From an uncultured Clostridia bacterium (GTDB lineage: Bacteria > Bacillota > Clostridia > Oscillospirales > Ruminococcaceae), in assembly GCA_947623585.1 (NCBI GenBank), contig CANQHA010000002.1:169566-233565 (forward strand): a stretch of 64,000 nucleotides of DNA, given 5' to 3'. This document shows, in pieces, positions 41,970 through 60,282 of the stretch. The position numbers were made by a program, and so were the translations under genes. The notes under the pieces are model-generated. The model was not told the origin of the DNA, did not search any database, and worked only from the letters and a program-made list of their open reading frames with translations. The stretch's first letter is position 1; each line of letters starts with the position of its first letter.

Positions 41970-42515
41970 ATGGATTGGAATTTATTCTGGACGGCGTTTG
42001 GTGCAATAGGCGGAACTCTCGGAGCTATTGCAACAACAGCGGCAGTAGCTGTTGCTTTGTGGCAAACAAAATACGCGAACAAGAAAAAACTTAAAGTGGA
42101 GTTCTCAGACAATATTGTTGTCGTTCCGTCACAAGGCAATTTATCTCAGAAACGTGAGTACATCGGAATCACAGCTACAAATATTGGAAATCGGCGCATC
42201 AAAGTTTGTAATTGGCAAGTTCGTTTCCCCGACGGACATGGTGCTTTGATTGTTCAGGATATATCTCCGATAGGGAAAATGCTCGCGCCTGCCTGGCCCG
42301 TTTTGCTCGAACCGGAAGAGCAAGCCTCTCAATATTGGGAGAAGAAACTGTTCTATGCGTTCATAAAAGATGAAGCTCCTAAATACAAGAAGAGAAATAG
42401 CCGCCTTCTATGGATTGTAAAGGACAGCACCCAAAAAGAATACAGAATCAAATCACCTAAAACAATTGCAGAATATTTTGATGAGGCGGAGGCTTATTAT
42501 CATGCCCACCCTTGA
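41970..42515 (+). CDS. Membrane-anchored protein overlapping mod, function unknown
   Basis: A 181-residue protein with one N-terminal membrane helix (residues 7-31, WTAFGAIGGTLGAIATTAAVAVAL is the core region) and a basic KKKK stop-transfer. A beta-rich cytosolic domain follows (residues 40-140, including REYIGITATNIGNRRIKV). I do not recognise the family, although similar small anchored proteins occur in phage and defence contexts. The ATG follows GAAAGGACATTTTTC. The last 14 bases overlap mod, so its translation is coupled to the methyltransferase and it is probably part of the same system. Confidence 0.65.
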   Translation: MDWNLFWTAFGAIGGTLGAIATTAAVAVALWQTKYANKKKLKVEFSDNIVVVPSQGNLSQKREYIGITATNIGNRRIKVCNWQVRFPDGHGALIVQDISPIGKMLAPAWPVLLEPEEQASQYWEKKLFYAFIKDEAPKYKKRNSRLLWIVKDSTQKEYRIKSPKTIAEYFDEAEAYYHAHP

Positions 42516-44256
42516 ATGGATCGGAAAAGATAAAGTGATCAACCACCACCAAGAGGTTCCCTATCGGGTGCTGGAGCGGCGGTACAGCTTTGACGCGGAC
42601 GGGCAGCATGACGCCGACAACGGCAGTGAGAACATGATCATCCGGGGAGACAATCTGGAGGCGCTGAAGGCGCTGCTGCCCCGGTATGAGGGGCGCGTCA
42701 AGTGCATCTACATCGATCCGCCGTACAACACAGGCAACGAGGGCTGGGTCTACAACGACAACGTGAACGACCCCAAGATCAGGAAGTGGCTGGGCGAGGT
42801 GGTCGGTCGTGAGGGTGAGGACCTGACCCGCCACGACAAGTGGCTGTGCATGATGTACCCACGGCTCAAGCTGCTGCAAAAGCTGCTGGCGGACGACGGG
42901 GTTATCTTCATCAGCATTGACGATACGGAATACGCTAATCTTAAATTGATATGCGATGAGATTTTTGGGGTGAACTGCTTTGTTTCTAACGTCTCGTGGC
43001 AACGAACTTATTCTATGAGGAATGACGCAAAGGGGATGCCAGCTGAAGTTGAACACATATTGGTTTATAGCAAAAAAGCAAATTGGCAGCCGCAAAAGTT
43101 AGAACGCACAGAGACTATGGATTCCAAATATAAGAATCCTGATAACGATCCAAAGGGTGCTTGGAGAAACATAATTGCCAGTGCGCCCAATGCATCAACC
43201 CATCAAGGTATGGTTTATGCAATTCAAAATCCTATAACAGGTGAGTATGCTTATCCCCCGCAAGGACGATGCTGGAGTTTGGGACAAGATCAAATGTTAG
43301 AAGCTATGTGTCAATGGTGTGAGTATACTCTTGCTGATTTAGAAGATTACACTGAACGTGCTGCGGTTTGCAACTTGTCAGTTGAAGCAATTAGAAAAGA
43401 TGTCATGGCAATTGTTCTTAAAGATGACCTTTCTACGGCAAAGCGAAAGGCGGCAGGCATATACAAAAATGGTCCTCTCCCAGAATTTTTCTTCTCTCGA
43501 AATGGCTATGGGGCGTTAAGCCGCAAAGCCTACTTAAAACTGATGGGCGGACGTCCTATGACAAACTTATGGCCGTTTGAAGAGGCTGGCCATACAGATG
43601 AGGCTTCAAGACTGTTGAAGGTTATTTTTGATGGTACATCCGTTTTTGATACACCAAAACCGCCTCGTTTGATTGAGAGAATTCTACATATTGTGGGAGG
43701 TCGAGACACGCTCATTCTCGACTCCTTCGCCGGTTCCGGCACCACCGCTCACGCCGTTCTTAACATGAACAAGGCAGACGGCGGCAACCGTAAGTTTATT
43801 CTCGTCGAGATGATGGACTACGCCGATTCCATAACCGCCGAGCGGGTGAAGCGCGTCATCCGTGGCTACGGTGAGGGCAAAAATGCCGTAGAGGGTACAG
43901 GCGGCGATTTCAGTTTCTACGACCTCGGCGAGCCGCTTTTGATCGGCGAAAACCTCAACGAAGCCGTGGGGACGGAAAAGATACGGGAGTATGTGTGGTT
44001 CATGGAGACAAAGTCTCCCTACACTCCTGCCGAGAGCGATAATACATATTTCCTCGGACGCCACAACGACACGAGCTACTATTTCTACTATGAGCCGGAG
44101 CGGATCACTGTCCTCGACTATGCGTTCCTCTCCGGCGTCACGGAGAGATCCGGCGGAACCGTTATCTACGCCGACCGCTGCGCCCTCGGCGAGGACAAGC
44201 TCGCGCAGATGGGGATCGTGTTCAAAAAGATCCCCCGCGACATCAGCAGACTGTAA
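42502..44256 (+). CDS. mod: Type III restriction-modification methyltransferase (Mod)
   Basis: A 584-residue adenine-N6 methyltransferase of the beta class, in which motif IV precedes motif I. Motif IV is YIDPPYNTGNEGWVYND near residue 74 and motif I is LDSFAGSGTTAHAVLNMN near 410. The region between (about 150-395) is the target-recognition domain; its DNA is visibly more AT-rich than the conserved flanks, as after domain exchange. I start at the ATG 42502 (GGAGG upstream); the track start lies inside the preceding gene. Mod recognises the site and, with Res, forms the nuclease. res begins 15 bases downstream. Confidence 0.93.
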   Translation: MPTLEWIGKDKVINHHQEVPYRVLERRYSFDADGQHDADNGSENMIIRGDNLEALKALLPRYEGRVKCIYIDPPYNTGNEGWVYNDNVNDPKIRKWLGEVVGREGEDLTRHDKWLCMMYPRLKLLQKLLADDGVIFISIDDTEYANLKLICDEIFGVNCFVSNVSWQRTYSMRNDAKGMPAEVEHILVYSKKANWQPQKLERTETMDSKYKNPDNDPKGAWRNIIASAPNASTHQGMVYAIQNPITGEYAYPPQGRCWSLGQDQMLEAMCQWCEYTLADLEDYTERAAVCNLSVEAIRKDVMAIVLKDDLSTAKRKAAGIYKNGPLPEFFFSRNGYGALSRKAYLKLMGGRPMTNLWPFEEAGHTDEASRLLKVIFDGTSVFDTPKPPRLIERILHIVGGRDTLILDSFAGSGTTAHAVLNMNKADGGNRKFILVEMMDYADSITAERVKRVIRGYGEGKNAVEGTGGDFSFYDLGEPLLIGENLNEAVGTEKIREYVWFMETKSPYTPAESDNTYFLGRHNDTSYYFYYEPERITVLDYAFLSGVTERSGGTVIYADRCALGEDKLAQMGIVFKKIPRDISRL

Positions 44257-44271
44257 AGGAGGCGGCGCAAT

Positions 44272-46884
44272 ATGGAGATGAAAACATATCAGAAAAAGGT
44301 GATTGCCGACCTCGTTCGCTATCTGGAACTGCTGAACGAGACGCGTGACAGCGGTGCTGCGTTCTACCACTTCTGGCGCGAAAAGAGCGCACCGTCTCTC
44401 GGTATCTATCAGGACATCCTGCCGGGTGTGCCGAATTTGTGTTTCAAAGTTCCCACGGGCGGCGGGAAGACGTTCATCGCCTGCAATTCTGTGCGCACGA
44501 TTTTTGACGCTCTGCCCGTCACAAAGACGAAAGCGGTCGTATGGCTTGTGCCCTCCGACGCGATCCTCACCCAGACCGTCAAGGCGTTGAAAGATGTCCG
44601 CCACCCGTACCGGCAGAAGATCGACGTGGATTTCGGCGGGCGCGTTGAGGTCTATACGAAAGAAGAACTTTTGAACGGGCAGAATTTCAATCCCACCGCC
44701 GTCACGGAACAGCTTTCGATCATGGTGCTGTCTTACGACTCGTTCCGTGGTCGCGGCAAAGAAGTGCTGAAAGCCTATCAGGAGAACAGTAATCTTGCTA
44801 ACTTCGCGAAAGTGCTTGGCAAGCCGGAAAATCCCATCGAAAAGGCGGACGAGTCCGCGCTGTTTCAGATCATCAATCAGTTGTCGCCCCTCGTGATAGT
44901 GGACGAGAGCCACCACGCACGGTCTGAACTTAGCATCGAGATGCTGGCAAATTTCAATCCCTGCTTTGTGCTTGATCTGACGGCTACGCCGAAAAAGGAG
45001 AGCAATATCATCTCTTATGTGGACGCTGTGCAGCTCAAGAACGAGAACATGGTGAAGCTGCCCGTGATCGTCTATAACCGGGACAGTCAGACAGAGGTTC
45101 TGACCGACGCCATTGACTTGCGGAACAAGTTAGAGGAAATCGCCGTCGCGGAACAGAAAAAGACGGGACGGTATATCCGCCCTATCGCATTGTTTCAAGC
45201 TCAGCCAAAGGGCAAAGAGGACGCGACGACATTTGAAAAGCTGCGGGAAAAGTTGATTGGCGCCGGAATCTCTGCGGAGCAGATCGCGATCCGCACTGCC
45301 GATGTGAACGAGCTGAAAAATGTAGAGCTGATGTCGCCGAACTGTCCGGTGCGGTATATCATCACTGTCAATGCGCTCAAAGAGGGCTGGGACTGCCCGT
45401 TTGCCTACATATTGGCGTCACTTGCCAACAAGACGAGCCAAGTGGATGTGGAGCAGATTCTGGGGCGTATCCTCCGACTGCCGCATACTGTCCAGCACAG
45501 CCAGCCCGCGCTGAATATGTCCTATGTGCTGACATCCTCCAACGATTTCGATGAGACAGTTCGCCGCATCATTCGTGGGCTCAACAGCGCCGGATTCAGC
45601 GATAAGGATTACCGCCTGTCCGCGCCGGTCGCCCCGAAGCCGGTTGTTCCCCATGAGCCGGAACAGCTTGAGATTCAACAGCCGGAAGCGTCTGATGAGG
45701 ATAATTTCGACGATGTAGACGGCGAGGCGATTGGAAAAGAGCTGGAGCGGCGTCGTGCGCAGGGCGAGACACCCGATGTACCCCAGAAAGCAGTGGATAT
45801 GCTGACAGAAGCGGAAAAAGCGGGGCAGGACTACGACGAAGCGCGTAATGGTGCGGAGAATGATCCCTACACAAATGTCCTCCCGTGGGAGGTGCGTGAC
45901 AAGGTGACGACTTTCTATGTTCATCCGCAGTTTCGGGGCGATGTGGAGAATTTGATGATTCCACAGTTTTTCCATGTGGTGCCGGAGTCTCTTTTTACCG
46001 AAGGAACGCTGGAGCTGTTGGAAAAGGAACAGCTTGCGGAGGGCTTTACGCTGAAGGGCAAGGCATATGATATTGACTTCGGTTCTGCGGACGATGAGAT
46101 TGCCAAGGTCGATGTCCGGCAAAGCGAAGGCGGTCTACCGAAGGTGTTCAAGATGTCCAGCGCCGACCAGCGGTATTTCAAAGAGTATTGCAACAGCCTG
46201 CCGCCGGAAAGCCGTGTGCGTCAGTGCAAGGATATGATGTTCTCTCAGCTTAACAAAATGAACACGGTGGACGCCGCCGAGCTGAGGGCCTATATTGACT
46301 TGATCGTTGGGACGATGGACAAAGCCCAGCTTGCCGCTATGGAAAAAGCGCCGCTCGGCTACGCTGCGAAGATCAAGGCGAAGATTGAATTACTGCTGAC
46401 GGAGCATTACAAGGAAACCTTTGCCCGTTGGCTGGAGACGGAACGCATCGTCTGCCGTCCGTCGTACCGTCTGCCCGTGTGCATCCATCCGATGGACAAT
46501 ACGGACATGATCGGCGGGTCGCTCTATCAGGCGGAGGAAGACATGAATCAGCTTGAGCAGGACTTGGTGATGGAGCTGACCGCTCTGCCCAACGTCCGCT
46601 GGTGGCATCGGAACATTGCGAAGCACGGCTTTTGCATCAACGGCTTTATCAATCACTACCCGGACATTATGCTGATGACGAACAGCGGGAAGATCATTCT
46701 TGTCGAGACAAAAGGCGAGCATCTGAAAAACGATGACAGCCGCGATAAAATCGCCCTCGGTCAGGCATGGCGCAACGCGGCGGGCAGCCAGTTCAAATAT
46801 TACATGGTGTTCGCCGACGGTGCCGAACCGCTGCCGGGAGCGGTGGGGATGAAGCAGTTCATGGAAATCGTGAAAGACATATAA
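44272..46884 (+). CDS. res: Type III restriction endonuclease subunit (Res)
   Basis: An 870-residue Res subunit. The superfamily-2 helicase part has Walker A VPTGGGKTFIACNS near residue 62, motif II IVDESHHARSE (DESH), motif III LDLTATP, and motif VI EQILGRILRLP. The C-terminal nuclease shows the PD-(D/E)xK pattern YPDIMLMTNSGKIILVETKG. It needs Mod and ATP to cleave unmethylated DNA. Full length with no lesion, so the R-M system appears functional. The ATG follows AGGAGGCGGC. Confidence 0.94.
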   Translation: MEMKTYQKKVIADLVRYLELLNETRDSGAAFYHFWREKSAPSLGIYQDILPGVPNLCFKVPTGGGKTFIACNSVRTIFDALPVTKTKAVVWLVPSDAILTQTVKALKDVRHPYRQKIDVDFGGRVEVYTKEELLNGQNFNPTAVTEQLSIMVLSYDSFRGRGKEVLKAYQENSNLANFAKVLGKPENPIEKADESALFQIINQLSPLVIVDESHHARSELSIEMLANFNPCFVLDLTATPKKESNIISYVDAVQLKNENMVKLPVIVYNRDSQTEVLTDAIDLRNKLEEIAVAEQKKTGRYIRPIALFQAQPKGKEDATTFEKLREKLIGAGISAEQIAIRTADVNELKNVELMSPNCPVRYIITVNALKEGWDCPFAYILASLANKTSQVDVEQILGRILRLPHTVQHSQPALNMSYVLTSSNDFDETVRRIIRGLNSAGFSDKDYRLSAPVAPKPVVPHEPEQLEIQQPEASDEDNFDDVDGEAIGKELERRRAQGETPDVPQKAVDMLTEAEKAGQDYDEARNGAENDPYTNVLPWEVRDKVTTFYVHPQFRGDVENLMIPQFFHVVPESLFTEGTLELLEKEQLAEGFTLKGKAYDIDFGSADDEIAKVDVRQSEGGLPKVFKMSSADQRYFKEYCNSLPPESRVRQCKDMMFSQLNKMNTVDAAELRAYIDLIVGTMDKAQLAAMEKAPLGYAAKIKAKIELLLTEHYKETFARWLETERIVCRPSYRLPVCIHPMDNTDMIGGSLYQAEEDMNQLEQDLVMELTALPNVRWWHRNIAKHGFCINGFINHYPDIMLMTNSGKIILVETKGEHLKNDDSRDKIALGQAWRNAAGSQFKYYMVFADGAEPLPGAVGMKQFMEIVKDI

Positions 46885-55798: not shown

Positions 55799-57133
55799 TC
55801 ACTCCCCCTCCACATACCTCTGCTCGATCGCCGGAACATAATACACCCCGTAATCGCCCTCGGCGTTTCCGCGCCAGCCCGCGGCCGAGCAGTAGAATTT
55901 ATAGTACGGAACGCCGTCGCCGCCATAGACGAGCTCGGCGTATTCGACGTCTTTTGAGGTCCTGCCCGAGTCCTCAAAGGGCGTCCAAACATATCCGCCG
56001 CTGTCGAGCAGCCCGAGCGCCTCGTCGAGGGTTATCGCCGGGTAGTCGCCGATTTTGCGGTACTGCTTTTCAAAAGCGCCCGGCACGCCATAGCAGATGA
56101 TCTCGCCGTCGTCCATGAAGTCGATGTTGTTCAGGCTGAAATTGATTATCGTTTTAACGATATCTTCTCGGTCGATCTCGGTCAGAGCGCCGTCATCATA
56201 GGTTGCAAGCTCGTCGAAGCAGGGGTGATACATTCCGACATAGCAGTTCTCGCTTTGCGAGGCGTTGACGGCGGTTTTTCCCGCTTCGTTTTTGCCGAGA
56301 AGCCATTCATATTTCACGAGCAGCTCGGGCGCGGCGTTCTCGGCTTCTTCACGAGAGGCGCCGAACCAAAACCCCACCTTTGCGCCGTCGGGCAGCTCAA
56401 AGCCCCCGTCGATGCTGATATCGGCCCGATAAAGCAGCGCGTCGGTCACGCGGATCTCAACCTTAACGCCGTTCTTTTCAAAGCTCATCATGGTCGGCTC
56501 GGCGTATTCCTCCGAGAGCTCGGTTTTGGTGCGTTCCGAGAGCTTTTCAAGCTCCTCGGGCGTAAGCCTGTTGTCTTTTATCTCGATTTCGTCGGGTTCA
56601 AAGCCAAAGCCAATCGCATAGAATCTCAAAGCCTCGAGCATAAAATCTCTGTCGACGTTTTCAATCATGCCGTTTTGCTCAAAGTTTCTTCGCATGACCC
56701 TCTCATAAACCGGCAGCGTATCGCCCTCGGAAATTTCAAGCTGCCGCCAAGGGTTTCCGCAGTCGAGGTTTGAAACGTCGCCCGCCGAATAGACCTCATC
56801 GCCGAGCGAGGCTTCTCCGACAGCGATTATAACGGTCGGAAGGCTTGAAGCCGGCGCTTTTGTCGTCGAGCCGTTCTCGGAAACTTCAGGCAAAACTGCG
56901 GCCGTCTCTGATCGCTCGGTAACGTCGGGCATTTGTTTTTCGAGCTCGATGTTCTTTGAAAGCGCCGCTCCCAAAAAAATCGCAAGCGCCGCGCAGGCGG
57001 CTGCTGCGCCGTATTTGAGGAACATCACGAAAGGCTTTTTACCGGGCTTTTTTGAGGTCTCGTCGGCCGCAGCTTCGTCCACGGTCTCGTCCGAAAGATG
57101 ATTCAGCGCTTCGATGAAATCCAGCTTTTTCAT
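55799..57133 (-). CDS. Membrane-anchored anti-sigma-like protein
   Basis: A 444-residue protein overlapping the sigma-factor gene by four bases (ATGA). It has a short cytosolic N-terminus (about 35 residues, FIEALNHLSDETVDEA, suited to bind sigma) and one membrane helix (FLKYGAAAACAALAIFLGAAL). A Thr/Ser linker and an extracellular domain of about 340 residues follow, rich in Asp, Glu and aromatic residues. No zinc-binding HxxxCxxC motif is present. The gene order and topology support an anti-sigma or signal-receiving role; the signal is unknown. Confidence 0.75.
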   Translation of the reverse strand: MKKLDFIEALNHLSDETVDEAAADETSKKPGKKPFVMFLKYGAAAACAALAIFLGAALSKNIELEKQMPDVTERSETAAVLPEVSENGSTTKAPASSLPTVIIAVGEASLGDEVYSAGDVSNLDCGNPWRQLEISEGDTLPVYERVMRRNFEQNGMIENVDRDFMLEALRFYAIGFGFEPDEIEIKDNRLTPEELEKLSERTKTELSEEYAEPTMMSFEKNGVKVEIRVTDALLYRADISIDGGFELPDGAKVGFWFGASREEAENAAPELLVKYEWLLGKNEAGKTAVNASQSENCYVGMYHPCFDELATYDDGALTEIDREDIVKTIINFSLNNIDFMDDGEIICYGVPGAFEKQYRKIGDYPAITLDEALGLLDSGGYVWTPFEDSGRTSKDVEYAELVYGGDGVPYYKFYCSAAGWRGNAEGDYGVYYVPAIEQRYVEGE

Positions 57134-57681
57134 ATCTCAAAGCCCTCCTTTTCAAGGTATTCCTTCAATCCTCGGCGGGTGCGAAAAAGCATACTTTTCA
57201 CCGCCGATTCGCTTACGCCCTGTCTTTTTGCGATATCTTTAAGGGCGTCGGCAAAATAATATCTCTGAACAAAAGCCGTGCGGGCGCTTTTTGAGACGGT
57301 TTTAAGATATGCGTCCACCGCTTCTCCCAAAAGAGATAAGTCGCAGCTTTGCTCGGTCTCAAAAATTATGTCTCCGAGCTCCTCGAGCGAGACTGTCAGC
57401 TCGGAGGAGATCCGTTTTTTCCGATGCTCGCGGCGATAAACGTCGATAGAAAGCTGCCGCGCCAGCTTGCCGAGATAGGTTTTAAGTATGTCGGGCCGCT
57501 GCGGAGGTATCGAGTTCCACGCCCGAAACAGCGTTTCATTCACGATCTCGCGCGCGTCCTCGAGGTCGGAAAGGATATTCAGCGCTATTTTTGAAAGATA
57601 TCCGCGATATTTGTTTTCGGTCTCCGAAAGCGCGGCCTCGTCGCGTTTCCAGAACAGCTCGACGATCATTTCGTCCTGCAC
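57130..57681 (-). CDS. ECF-type RNA polymerase sigma factor
   Basis: About 183 residues with region 2 (NILSDLEDAREIVNETLFRAW) and region 4 (LKDIAKRQGVSESAVKSMLF, then RTRRGLKEYL). It directs polymerase to a stress or envelope regulon. The ORF track starts at a TTG; the GTG at 57681 has GGGAAG eight bases upstream and gives a normal N-terminus, and an ATG follows at 57669. It is co-transcribed with the membrane protein downstream. Its own promoter motif is not evident in the short gap to the tRNAs. Confidence 0.88.
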   Translation of the reverse strand: MQDEMIVELFWKRDEAALSETENKYRGYLSKIALNILSDLEDAREIVNETLFRAWNSIPPQRPDILKTYLGKLARQLSIDVYRREHRKKRISSELTVSLEELGDIIFETEQSCDLSLLGEAVDAYLKTVSKSARTAFVQRYYFADALKDIAKRQGVSESAVKSMLFRTRRGLKEYLEKEGFEI

Positions 57682-57802
57682 GGTTTTCACTTCCCTTTTT
57701 CCTTTTACTATATATCCCGACAAAATCGCGCGGTCGGTTTCGCAAAATTATAAAAAATAAAATCGAGCCGAAAATTAAAATAGCAGCCCGAGGACGGATA
57801 TC

Positions 57803-59319: not shown

Positions 59320-59398
59320 GAACGCAAAAATGTAATTTTTCTGTAATCATGCCGCCGAAATTGTAAACGAAGCGTAACAAATTGTAATCGCTCTGTTC

Positions 59399-59426
59399 TT
59401 GAATCCGCGAAAAAACGTGCTATACT
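59399..59426 (+). promoter_or_regulatory. Promoter of the NlpC/P60-like lipoprotein
   Basis: TTGAAT, 16 bases, TATACT with TGC before it (extended -10), 55 bases upstream of the start. Confidence 0.75.
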
Positions 59427-59481
59427 TAAATTATACCGAAAGAAGCGGTGTATACAATTTCTCAAAGGAGGCGTTTTAAAT

Positions 59482-60168
59482 ATGAAAAGCACAAAGCTCA
59501 GCATTGTAAACTCGGTCGTCGCGGGAATACTTATCTGCGCGATGCTCGCCGCCTGCGGAGCAGTTGAAAAGCAAAGCGCGGCGTTTTCCGACGGCGTGTC
59601 AAATTTGCCCGTTTCGGAGGATATGACCGAAAGCGCCGCCCCCGAAACTCAGCCTGCGACAAGCGAAGAAACGCCCGAGACCGAAGCGCCCGTTACCGAA
59701 GCGGAGGCGAGCGAGCCCTCGGAAATCTCTGAGCCCGAGCCGGCGGAAACCGAACCCGAGCCCGAGGAAGAACCGGTTTTTTCCGAATCCGACGCGGCGT
59801 CGATCGTAGTGGATACGGCGGCGGGGCTTCTGGGATATCCCTATAAATCGGGCGGCAGCTCGCCCGACGAGGGCTTTGACTCCTCGGGATTTACATATTA
59901 CTGCATGAGGGCCGCGGGCATAAATTTTCCCCGACAGATAAGCGGTCAGCTTGAATCGGGCATAAAAATCGCCTATCAGGATCTTATGCCGGGCGACGCG
60001 GTTTATTTCTCTCACGAGCCTGGCGAAGAAGCGGGCTTCTGCGGAATATATCTGGGCGGCGGACTTATAATCTATTCTCCGGTGCCCGACGAGTTCGTCA
60101 AAACCTCGAACATCACCACAAACTACTGGACCTCGAGGTTCGTCACGGGTATAAGACCCGAAAACTAA
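59482..60168 (+). CDS. Lipoprotein with inactive NlpC/P60-like domain
   Basis: A 228-residue lipoprotein with lipobox MLAAC (Cys near residue 25) and a Glu/Pro/Thr linker (about 45-100). The C-terminal fold is that of NlpC/P60 endopeptidases (LLGYPYKSGGSSPDEGFDSSG, then PRQISGQ, MPGDAVYF, GIYLGGG). The catalytic Cys of the DCSG motif is Ser (FDSSG). The HVGIY His is lost (FCGIY), and the third HA position is YS. It is therefore probably a wall-binding or regulatory pseudoenzyme. The ATG follows AAAGGAGGCGTTTTAAAT. Confidence 0.88.
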   Translation: MKSTKLSIVNSVVAGILICAMLAACGAVEKQSAAFSDGVSNLPVSEDMTESAAPETQPATSEETPETEAPVTEAEASEPSEISEPEPAETEPEPEEEPVFSESDAASIVVDTAAGLLGYPYKSGGSSPDEGFDSSGFTYYCMRAAGINFPRQISGQLESGIKIAYQDLMPGDAVYFSHEPGEEAGFCGIYLGGGLIIYSPVPDEFVKTSNITTNYWTSRFVTGIRPEN

Positions 60169-60210
60169 GCCATTTTCCATCCTCCTTACTTTCATTTTCA
60201 TAAAAAGCCG

Positions 60211-60245
60211 GCAGAGTCGTTCAAAAGCGGCTCTGCTGCTTTTTG
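60211..60245 (+). terminator. Terminator of the lipoprotein gene
   Basis: GCAGAGTCG and CGGCTCTGC arms around TTCAAAAG, followed by TGCTTTTTG. Confidence 0.8.
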
Positions 60246-60282
60246 TTGGCGCGTTAAGAAAACAGAGGGCAGAGGTCGGGAG

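What the first reader, a model, noticed from the sequence alone, without database searches (positions are those of the whole stretch)
59482..60168. NlpC/P60 lipoprotein lacking the whole catalytic triad
Seen: FDSSG instead of DCSG, FCGIY instead of HVGIY, and YS at the HA position, within an otherwise recognisable fold, with a clean lipobox, promoter and terminator. Inference: an expressed pseudoenzyme that binds peptidoglycan or inhibits a true endopeptidase.
Basis: partly seen in the sequence, partly recalled or inferred. Interest (0 to 1): 0.5.

Follow-up and report, generated by a model that had tools for sequence, protein, structure and literature searches.

The report
Dead wall-enzyme gene with RNA tail
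A gut bacterium carries a membrane-anchored relative of cell-wall-cutting enzymes whose cutting site has been lost in its whole family, and the gene's transcript ends in a conserved, probably regulatory RNA stretch that persists in sister species after the protein gene has disappeared.

Summary
The 228-aa ORF (59482-60168) is an NlpC/P60 lipoprotein with all three catalytic residues replaced (S134, F186, Y198). It belongs to one clade (support 100/98) of 28 homologues from six genera, all without the triad but with the D-(S/T)-R residues of the presumed peptide groove; dN/dS is 0.05-0.09 in close pairs. It is a real pseudoenzyme, most likely peptidoglycan-binding like mycobacterial RipD. Inhibiting a true NlpC/P60 is unlikely: the genome has no other.

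The larger finding lies outside the ORF. In all 31 genomes of the genus the locus has an OmpR/PhoB-type direct-repeat promoter (WalR-box-like), an unpaired anti-Shine-Dalgarno stretch (UCCUCC) and a terminator. The ORF is intact in 15, a stub in one, absent in 15. A species tree requires at least two independent ORF losses, leaving 100-200-nt transcripts with no recognisable gene. In 14 genomes an 18-mer of the 3' element is invariant while fourfold sites are 45% identical. This resembles a dual-function mRNA/sRNA, convergent with streptococcal csRNAs. Expression, RNA targets and protein ligand are untested.

The parts
59331..59347 (+). Upstream WalR-box-like direct repeat TGTAAT-N5-TGTAAT
   Evidence: Exact match to TGTWAH-N5-TGTWAH; 17 such sites genome-wide against 7 for the reversed-pattern control
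59362..59402 (+). Direct-repeat array TGTAAA-N5-CGTAAC-N4-TGTAAT-N5-TGTTCTTGA ending in the -35 element
   Evidence: Array upstream of all 16 genus copies (p <= 0.001 each against shuffles); degenerate pattern found in 27 of 31 genus genomes, control 0
59399..59426 (+). Sigma-70-like promoter TTGAAT-16-TATACT
   Evidence: 9 of 12 matches
59464..59471 (+). Ribosome-binding site AAAGGAGG
   Evidence: Sequence
59482..60168 (+). ORF of 228 aa: NlpC/P60 pseudoenzyme lipoprotein
59545..59556 (+). Lipobox LAAC (residues 22-25; lipidated Cys25)
   Evidence: Sequence; not kept in all relatives: Tyr in G020, a non-lipobox N-terminus in G005
59557..59781 (+). Acidic Pro/Glu-rich linker, predicted disordered
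   Evidence: pLDDT mostly below 50 for residues 35-100
59782..60159 (+). NlpC/P60-fold domain (residues 101-226)
   Evidence: AF2 model and Foldseek
59881..59883 (+). Ser134 at the nucleophile Cys position (S/A/T in the genus, N or S elsewhere)
60037..60039 (+). Phe186 at the catalytic His position (F in 27 of 28 homologues)
60073..60075 (+). Tyr198 at the third triad position (Y in 20 of 28; never H)
60169..60246 (+). 3' UTR, sRNA-like: unpaired pyrimidine-rich stretch plus terminator
   Evidence: z -6.1; conserved genus-wide
60179..60198 (+). Anti-Shine-Dalgarno element AUCCUCCUUACUUUCAUUUU
   Evidence: One copy per genome in 13 of 14 carriers, none in 294 sampled genomes of other genera; its 18-mer core is invariant in 14 genomes while fourfold sites are 45% identical
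60209..60238 (+). Intrinsic terminator hairpin, followed by CTTTTTG

Best explanation
One regulated transcription unit with two products. (1) The ORF makes a membrane-anchored lipoprotein whose long acidic linker holds an NlpC/P60 domain out in the wall. The domain cannot hydrolyse by the family's chemistry (no Cys, no His) but keeps the groove residues and so probably binds peptidoglycan stem peptides, acting as a wall sensor, tether or recruiter. (2) The 3' end of the transcript, or the whole short transcript where the ORF is lost, is an sRNA-like element: an unpaired UCCUCC stretch ahead of a terminator that would block Shine-Dalgarno sequences of target mRNAs. Both would be switched on by an OmpR/PhoB-family response regulator binding the 11-bp direct repeats. 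Shown computationally: loss of the triad, its single origin, purifying selection, genus-wide conservation of promoter and 3' element, ORF loss with RNA retention. Inferred: peptidoglycan binding, transcription, sRNA action in trans, regulator identity.
For: Triad absent in 28/28 family members, one clade at 100/98. dN/dS 0.05-0.09 in four close pairs. D133, Ser/Thr135 and R151 equivalents kept in 28/28. Fold confirmed. Direct-repeat promoter in all 16 genus copies and, by pattern, in 27/31 genomes with zero control hits. By script or by eye, promoter, UCCUCC and terminator in 31/31. No-ORF versions in G006-G016, G017, G022, G023; G023 shares the 5' and 3' UTR of the window gene. PheT tree: the RNA-only state needs 3 label changes, with two RNA-only clades nested among ORF bearers. 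18-mer invariant in 14 genomes against 45% fourfold identity. UCCUCC unpaired in the window fold. The variable hairpin of the RNA-only transcripts shows compensatory changes.
Against: No expression data. No convincing target: 14-nt complementary matches in the genome (17) do not exceed the reversed-pattern control (29). In ORF-bearing species the 3' element could instead pair with its own ribosome-binding site (predicted duplex -11.5 kcal/mol). No response regulator in the genome reaches the WalR cut-off (206.7 against 340 bits). Peptidoglycan binding rests on analogy. Gene neighbourhood is not conserved across genera, so no partner is suggested. The 3' element was not seen in other genera that carry the ORF. 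The repeat sites are only modestly enriched genome-wide (17 against 7).
Confidence: 0.5

Rival explanations
1. Pseudoenzyme only: a RipD-like peptidoglycan-binding lipoprotein. The 3' UTR acts only in cis, pairing with its own Shine-Dalgarno sequence to restrain translation, as described for icaR mRNA in S. aureus.
For: Predicted 5'-3' UTR duplex of -11.5 kcal/mol over the RBS region; published precedent of a 5'-/3'-UTR pairing that controls translation (PMC3868564).
Against: The element and promoter are kept in 15 genomes without the ORF, where there is no RBS of its own to control.
Confidence: 0.2
2. Dominant-negative inhibitor: the dead domain competes with, or dimerises with, an active NlpC/P60 endopeptidase.
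For: General pseudoenzyme logic; groove residues kept.
Against: No other NlpC/P60 in this genome. Extra copies in the genus are few and fall in only two of the 15 ORF-bearing genomes. It could still protect stem peptides from unrelated hydrolases.
Confidence: 0.1
3. Neofunctionalised enzyme: the active site is rebuilt around other residues, for example the Cys141/Cys187 pair conserved in the genus, giving a different chemistry or a disulfide switch.
For: C141 and C187 are invariant in all 15 genus copies and absent as a pair from the 13 relatives in other genera.
Against: No conserved general base next to Cys187 (its neighbour is Phe); the relatives in other genera lack both Cys.
Confidence: 0.07
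4. Decaying gene: the ORF is on its way out and the substitutions are neutral.
For: ORF lost in 15 genomes and reduced to a stub in one; lipobox lost in G020.
Against: dN/dS 0.05-0.09 and about 45 invariant residues across 15 copies; a single ancient loss of the triad followed by long persistence in six genera.
Confidence: 0.05

Closest known systems
RipD (Rv1566c) of Mycobacterium tuberculosis, non-catalytic NlpC/P60 peptidoglycan-binding protein
   Same: NlpC/P60 fold with the catalytic triad replaced; RipD retains peptidoglycan binding (PMC12067865; 4jxb among the fold matches).
   Different: Different substitutions (RipD Ala83-Ser132-Glu144); RipD has C-terminal pentapeptide repeats, absent here; the RipD model matches at 34 bits against a 215 cut-off. 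Independent origin likely.
Active Clostridia NlpC/P60 autolysins (Acd24020, Acd33800, diffocin hub hydrolase CD1368)
   Same: Same fold, 25-35% identity, target TM up to 0.90.
   Different: They have Cys-His-His; here all three are lost.
csRNAs of streptococci (CiaR-controlled small RNAs)
   Same: OmpR-family response-regulator direct repeats with 5-nt spacing next to the promoter, short transcript, unpaired anti-Shine-Dalgarno stretch, terminator (PMC3091779).
   Different: Repeat sequence TGTAAY rather than TTTAAG; one locus per genome; half the species carry a 205-244-aa ORF inside the transcription unit; no sequence homology claimed.
SgrS/SgrT dual-function RNA
   Same: An RNA-plus-ORF locus in which some species lack the ORF (Yersinia SgrS lacks sgrT; PMC4021124).
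   Different: SgrT is about 40 aa; here the ORF is a 228-aa folded lipoprotein and the RNA element lies in the 3' UTR.
WalR (YycF) regulon
   Same: Repeat matches TGTWAH-N5-TGTWAH (PMC9210968); that regulon controls wall-remodelling genes.
   Different: No regulator here passes the WalR model cut-off.

Membership tests
NlpC/P60 fold family (PF00877) | Sequence profile and fold | tested here: met
   66.5 bits against cut-off 23; Foldseek target TM 0.88-0.90
NlpC/P60 peptidases (active) | Cys nucleophile, His base, third polar residue (usually His) | tested here: not met
   S134, F186, Y198; none of 28 homologues has Cys or His at the first two positions
RipD | NCBIfam RipD model match | tested here: not met
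   34.3 bits against 215
RipD | Non-catalytic NlpC/P60 that binds peptidoglycan | not testable with these tools
   Non-catalytic by sequence; binding needs an assay
Lipoprotein | Signal peptide with lipobox Cys | tested here: met
   LAAC at residues 22-25; kept in 13 of 15 genus copies
WalR regulon | TGTWAH-N5-TGTWAH upstream | tested here: met
   59331-59347
WalR regulon | WalR orthologue in the genome | tested here: inconclusive
   Related regulators present, best 206.7 bits against cut-off 340; WalR identity is not established
csRNA (CiaR-controlled) | NTTAAG-N5-TTTAAG repeat | tested here: not met
   Repeat is TGTAAY/YGTAAC
csRNA-like sRNA (working principle) | Unpaired anti-Shine-Dalgarno stretch before a terminator | tested here: met
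   Folds; UCCUCC in 31/31 loci
Trans-acting sRNA | Separate transcript and mRNA targets | not testable with these tools
   No RNA data; target search inconclusive
Known Rfam RNA family | Rfam match | tested here: not met
   No match over this transcript at gathering or at E <= 1

The most novel reading that the evidence does not exclude
A protein-coding mRNA has turned into a small regulatory RNA at least twice within one genus: a response-regulator-driven transcript encoding a wall-binding pseudoenzyme acquired an SD-blocking 3' element, and the ORF was then deleted while promoter, leader remnants, anti-SD element and terminator were kept. That would be a natural series (ORF, stub, RNA only) of sRNA birth from a 3' UTR.
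Probability: 0.45. Interest if true: 0.72.

Novelty: new variant of a known kind. Interest (0 to 1): 0.58.

Why it matters
The protein gives a second, probably independent lineage of dead NlpC/P60 domains beside RipD, in organisms that mostly have no active NlpC/P60, so its role cannot be explained as regulating a close paralogue. The locus gives a testable natural series for how a 3' UTR becomes a free-standing sRNA, with intermediate states (15 ORF, 1 stub, 15 RNA only) in one genus. It also suggests that an envelope-type two-component system in these gut bacteria has an sRNA arm built like the streptococcal one.

Tried and rejected
Conserved gene neighbours as a clue to a partner: none across genera, only clade-specific synteny. 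Regulation by a bona fide WalR: no regulator over the model cut-off. Repeat-box genes as a wall regulon: 17 sites include one ahead of mreB, but the set is mixed and only about 2.4 times the control. mRNA targets of the 3' element: hits include ribosome-binding sites of ribosomal and recombinase genes, but the count is below control. Known RNA family: no Rfam match. Antisense gene reading AAGGAGG on the other strand: rejected because the reading frames are not conserved in RNA-only genomes and promoter and terminator point the other way (sequence). A first automatic table of promoter-UCCUCC-terminator missed many loci because its stem finder demanded perfect stems; the repeat found 28, and G000, G020 and G028 were checked by eye. 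Anti-AUG (CAU 5' of UCCUCC) is common but was not tested against chance, so it is only suggestive.

Full report
OBSERVATION. The ORF is at 59482-60168 (+), 228 aa, with an RBS, a lipobox (LAAC) and a disordered acidic linker followed by an NlpC/P60 domain. AlphaFold2, using an alignment of 15 orthologues, models residues 101-226 with pLDDT above 90; Foldseek finds solved NlpC/P60 enzymes, best 7cfl at target TM 0.88-0.90. Alignment with active enzymes shows Cys->Ser134, His->Phe186, His->Tyr198.

THE FAMILY. Fifteen of 31 genomes of the genus, this one included, carry a full-length copy; the other fourteen are 45-59% identical to the window protein. A sixteenth genome (G025) has a 75-aa stub with the domain gone. 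Thirteen more distant members lie in five other genera of the family. None of the 28 has Cys at the nucleophile or His at the base position. In a tree with 25 active relatives the 28 form one clade at 100/98, so the triad was most simply lost once, anciently. The nucleophile position is S, A, T or N; the base position is F in 27 and I in one; the third position is Y in 20. The Asp and Ser/Thr flanking the lost Cys, and the Arg of the PR motif, are kept in all 28. That these line the peptide-binding groove is my knowledge of NlpC/P60 structures, not tested here. Pairwise dN/dS in the domain is 0.047-0.085 for four close pairs. This is a selected protein, not a decaying enzyme.

WHAT THE PROTEIN DOES. 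The genome has no other NlpC/P60; in the genus the additional hits are few. A dominant-negative on a paralogue is therefore unlikely. The simplest reading is a membrane-tethered peptidoglycan reader. The precedent is RipD, which lost its triad and kept peptidoglycan binding (PMC12067865), though ours is not a RipD by the curated model (34 against 215 bits). Two cysteines, 141 and 187, are invariant in the genus and absent as a pair from the other genera; whether they bond is unknown.

THE PROMOTER. Upstream lies an array of 11-bp direct repeats ending at the -35 element, with a further repeat pair at 59331-59347. It scores p <= 0.001 against shuffles in each of the 16 genus copies (the stub included); a few members in other genera have similar arrays. 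It fits the WalR consensus TGTWAH-N5-TGTWAH (PMC9210968), but no regulator in the genome reaches the WalR cut-off, so only 'OmpR/PhoB-type' is claimed.

THE RNA. A degenerate form of the array finds 27 of 31 genus genomes with no hit for the reversed control, including genomes with no pseudoenzyme; the four missed (G003, G030, G017, G022) have a 5-nt middle spacer. In ORF-less genomes the promoter is followed by 100-200 nt without a recognisable gene, then a UCCUCC stretch and a terminator. Eleven of these (G006-G016) align closely and show a hairpin with compensatory changes. G023 has the 5' and 3' UTR of the window gene with the ORF removed. In ORF-bearing species the same UCCUCC stretch and terminator form the 3' UTR. 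By script for 28 loci and by eye for G000, G020 and G028, all 31 genomes have promoter, UCCUCC and terminator. In the clade that holds the window, an 18-mer (TCCTCCTTACTTTCATTT) is invariant in 14 genomes while fourfold sites of the ORF domain are 45% identical and only 1 of 26 shared fourfold columns is invariant. Two of the 14 (G017, G022) were found by this very motif, which makes the figure slightly circular for them; the other twelve were found by the protein or the promoter. The 20-mer occurs once per genome in 13 of the 14 carriers and in none of 294 sampled genomes of other genera. In the window the element is unpaired and the terminator strong (z -6.1).

HISTORY. On a PheT tree the RNA-only state requires three changes; two RNA-only clades (G006-G016; G017/G022/G023) are nested among ORF bearers, and G001 sits on a long uncertain branch. 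Since the ORF family also exists in five other genera and the 3' element was not seen there, the best reading is that the coding gene came first, the 3' element arose in this genus, and the ORF was lost at least twice, with the stub a third reduction.

COMPARISON. The design (response-regulator repeats, short transcript, unpaired anti-SD, terminator) equals that of streptococcal csRNAs (PMC3091779) with different repeats and no homology claimed. SgrS/SgrT is a precedent for ORF loss from a dual-function RNA (PMC4021124). A cis role by 5'-3' UTR pairing, as in icaR (PMC3868564), is possible in ORF species (duplex -11.5 kcal/mol) but cannot explain retention where the ORF is gone. No Rfam family matches, and a target search gave nothing above control.

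VERDICT. The pseudoenzyme is real (about 0.97). Peptidoglycan binding is plausible (about 0.55). The 3' element is a functional RNA (about 0.75) and acts in trans as an sRNA (about 0.5).

Noticed in passing
L031:1501-1725 (G025): The orthologue is reduced to a 75-aa lipoprotein stub ending in TGIRP, with promoter and 3' element intact: an intermediate between ORF and RNA-only states.
   Followed up: yes
L026 (G005) and L027 (G020): Anchoring varies: G005 has a hydrophobic segment without a lipobox Cys, G020 has Tyr at the lipobox Cys (LAAY).
   Followed up: no
window residues C141 and C187 (59902-59904, 60040-60042): Two cysteines invariant in the genus and missing as a pair in the other genera; possible disulfide or metal site.
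   Followed up: partly
L111:1501-1517: A TGTWAH-N5-TGTWAH site lies just upstream of mreB in the same genome.
   Followed up: partly
L098 (G162): Two tandem copies of the pseudoenzyme gene, one with a long SSEDNTSSDD-type repeat linker and a strong repeat-array promoter.
   Followed up: no
window 55799-57723 (-): Sigma-factor-like gene followed by a membrane protein gene, resembling an ECF sigma and anti-sigma pair; the sigma-like gene also lies near the locus in G019 and G025.
   Followed up: no
window 42466-46884: Two adjacent genes resembling a type III restriction-modification pair (methyltransferase and helicase-like subunit); judged by reading the translations only.
   Followed up: no
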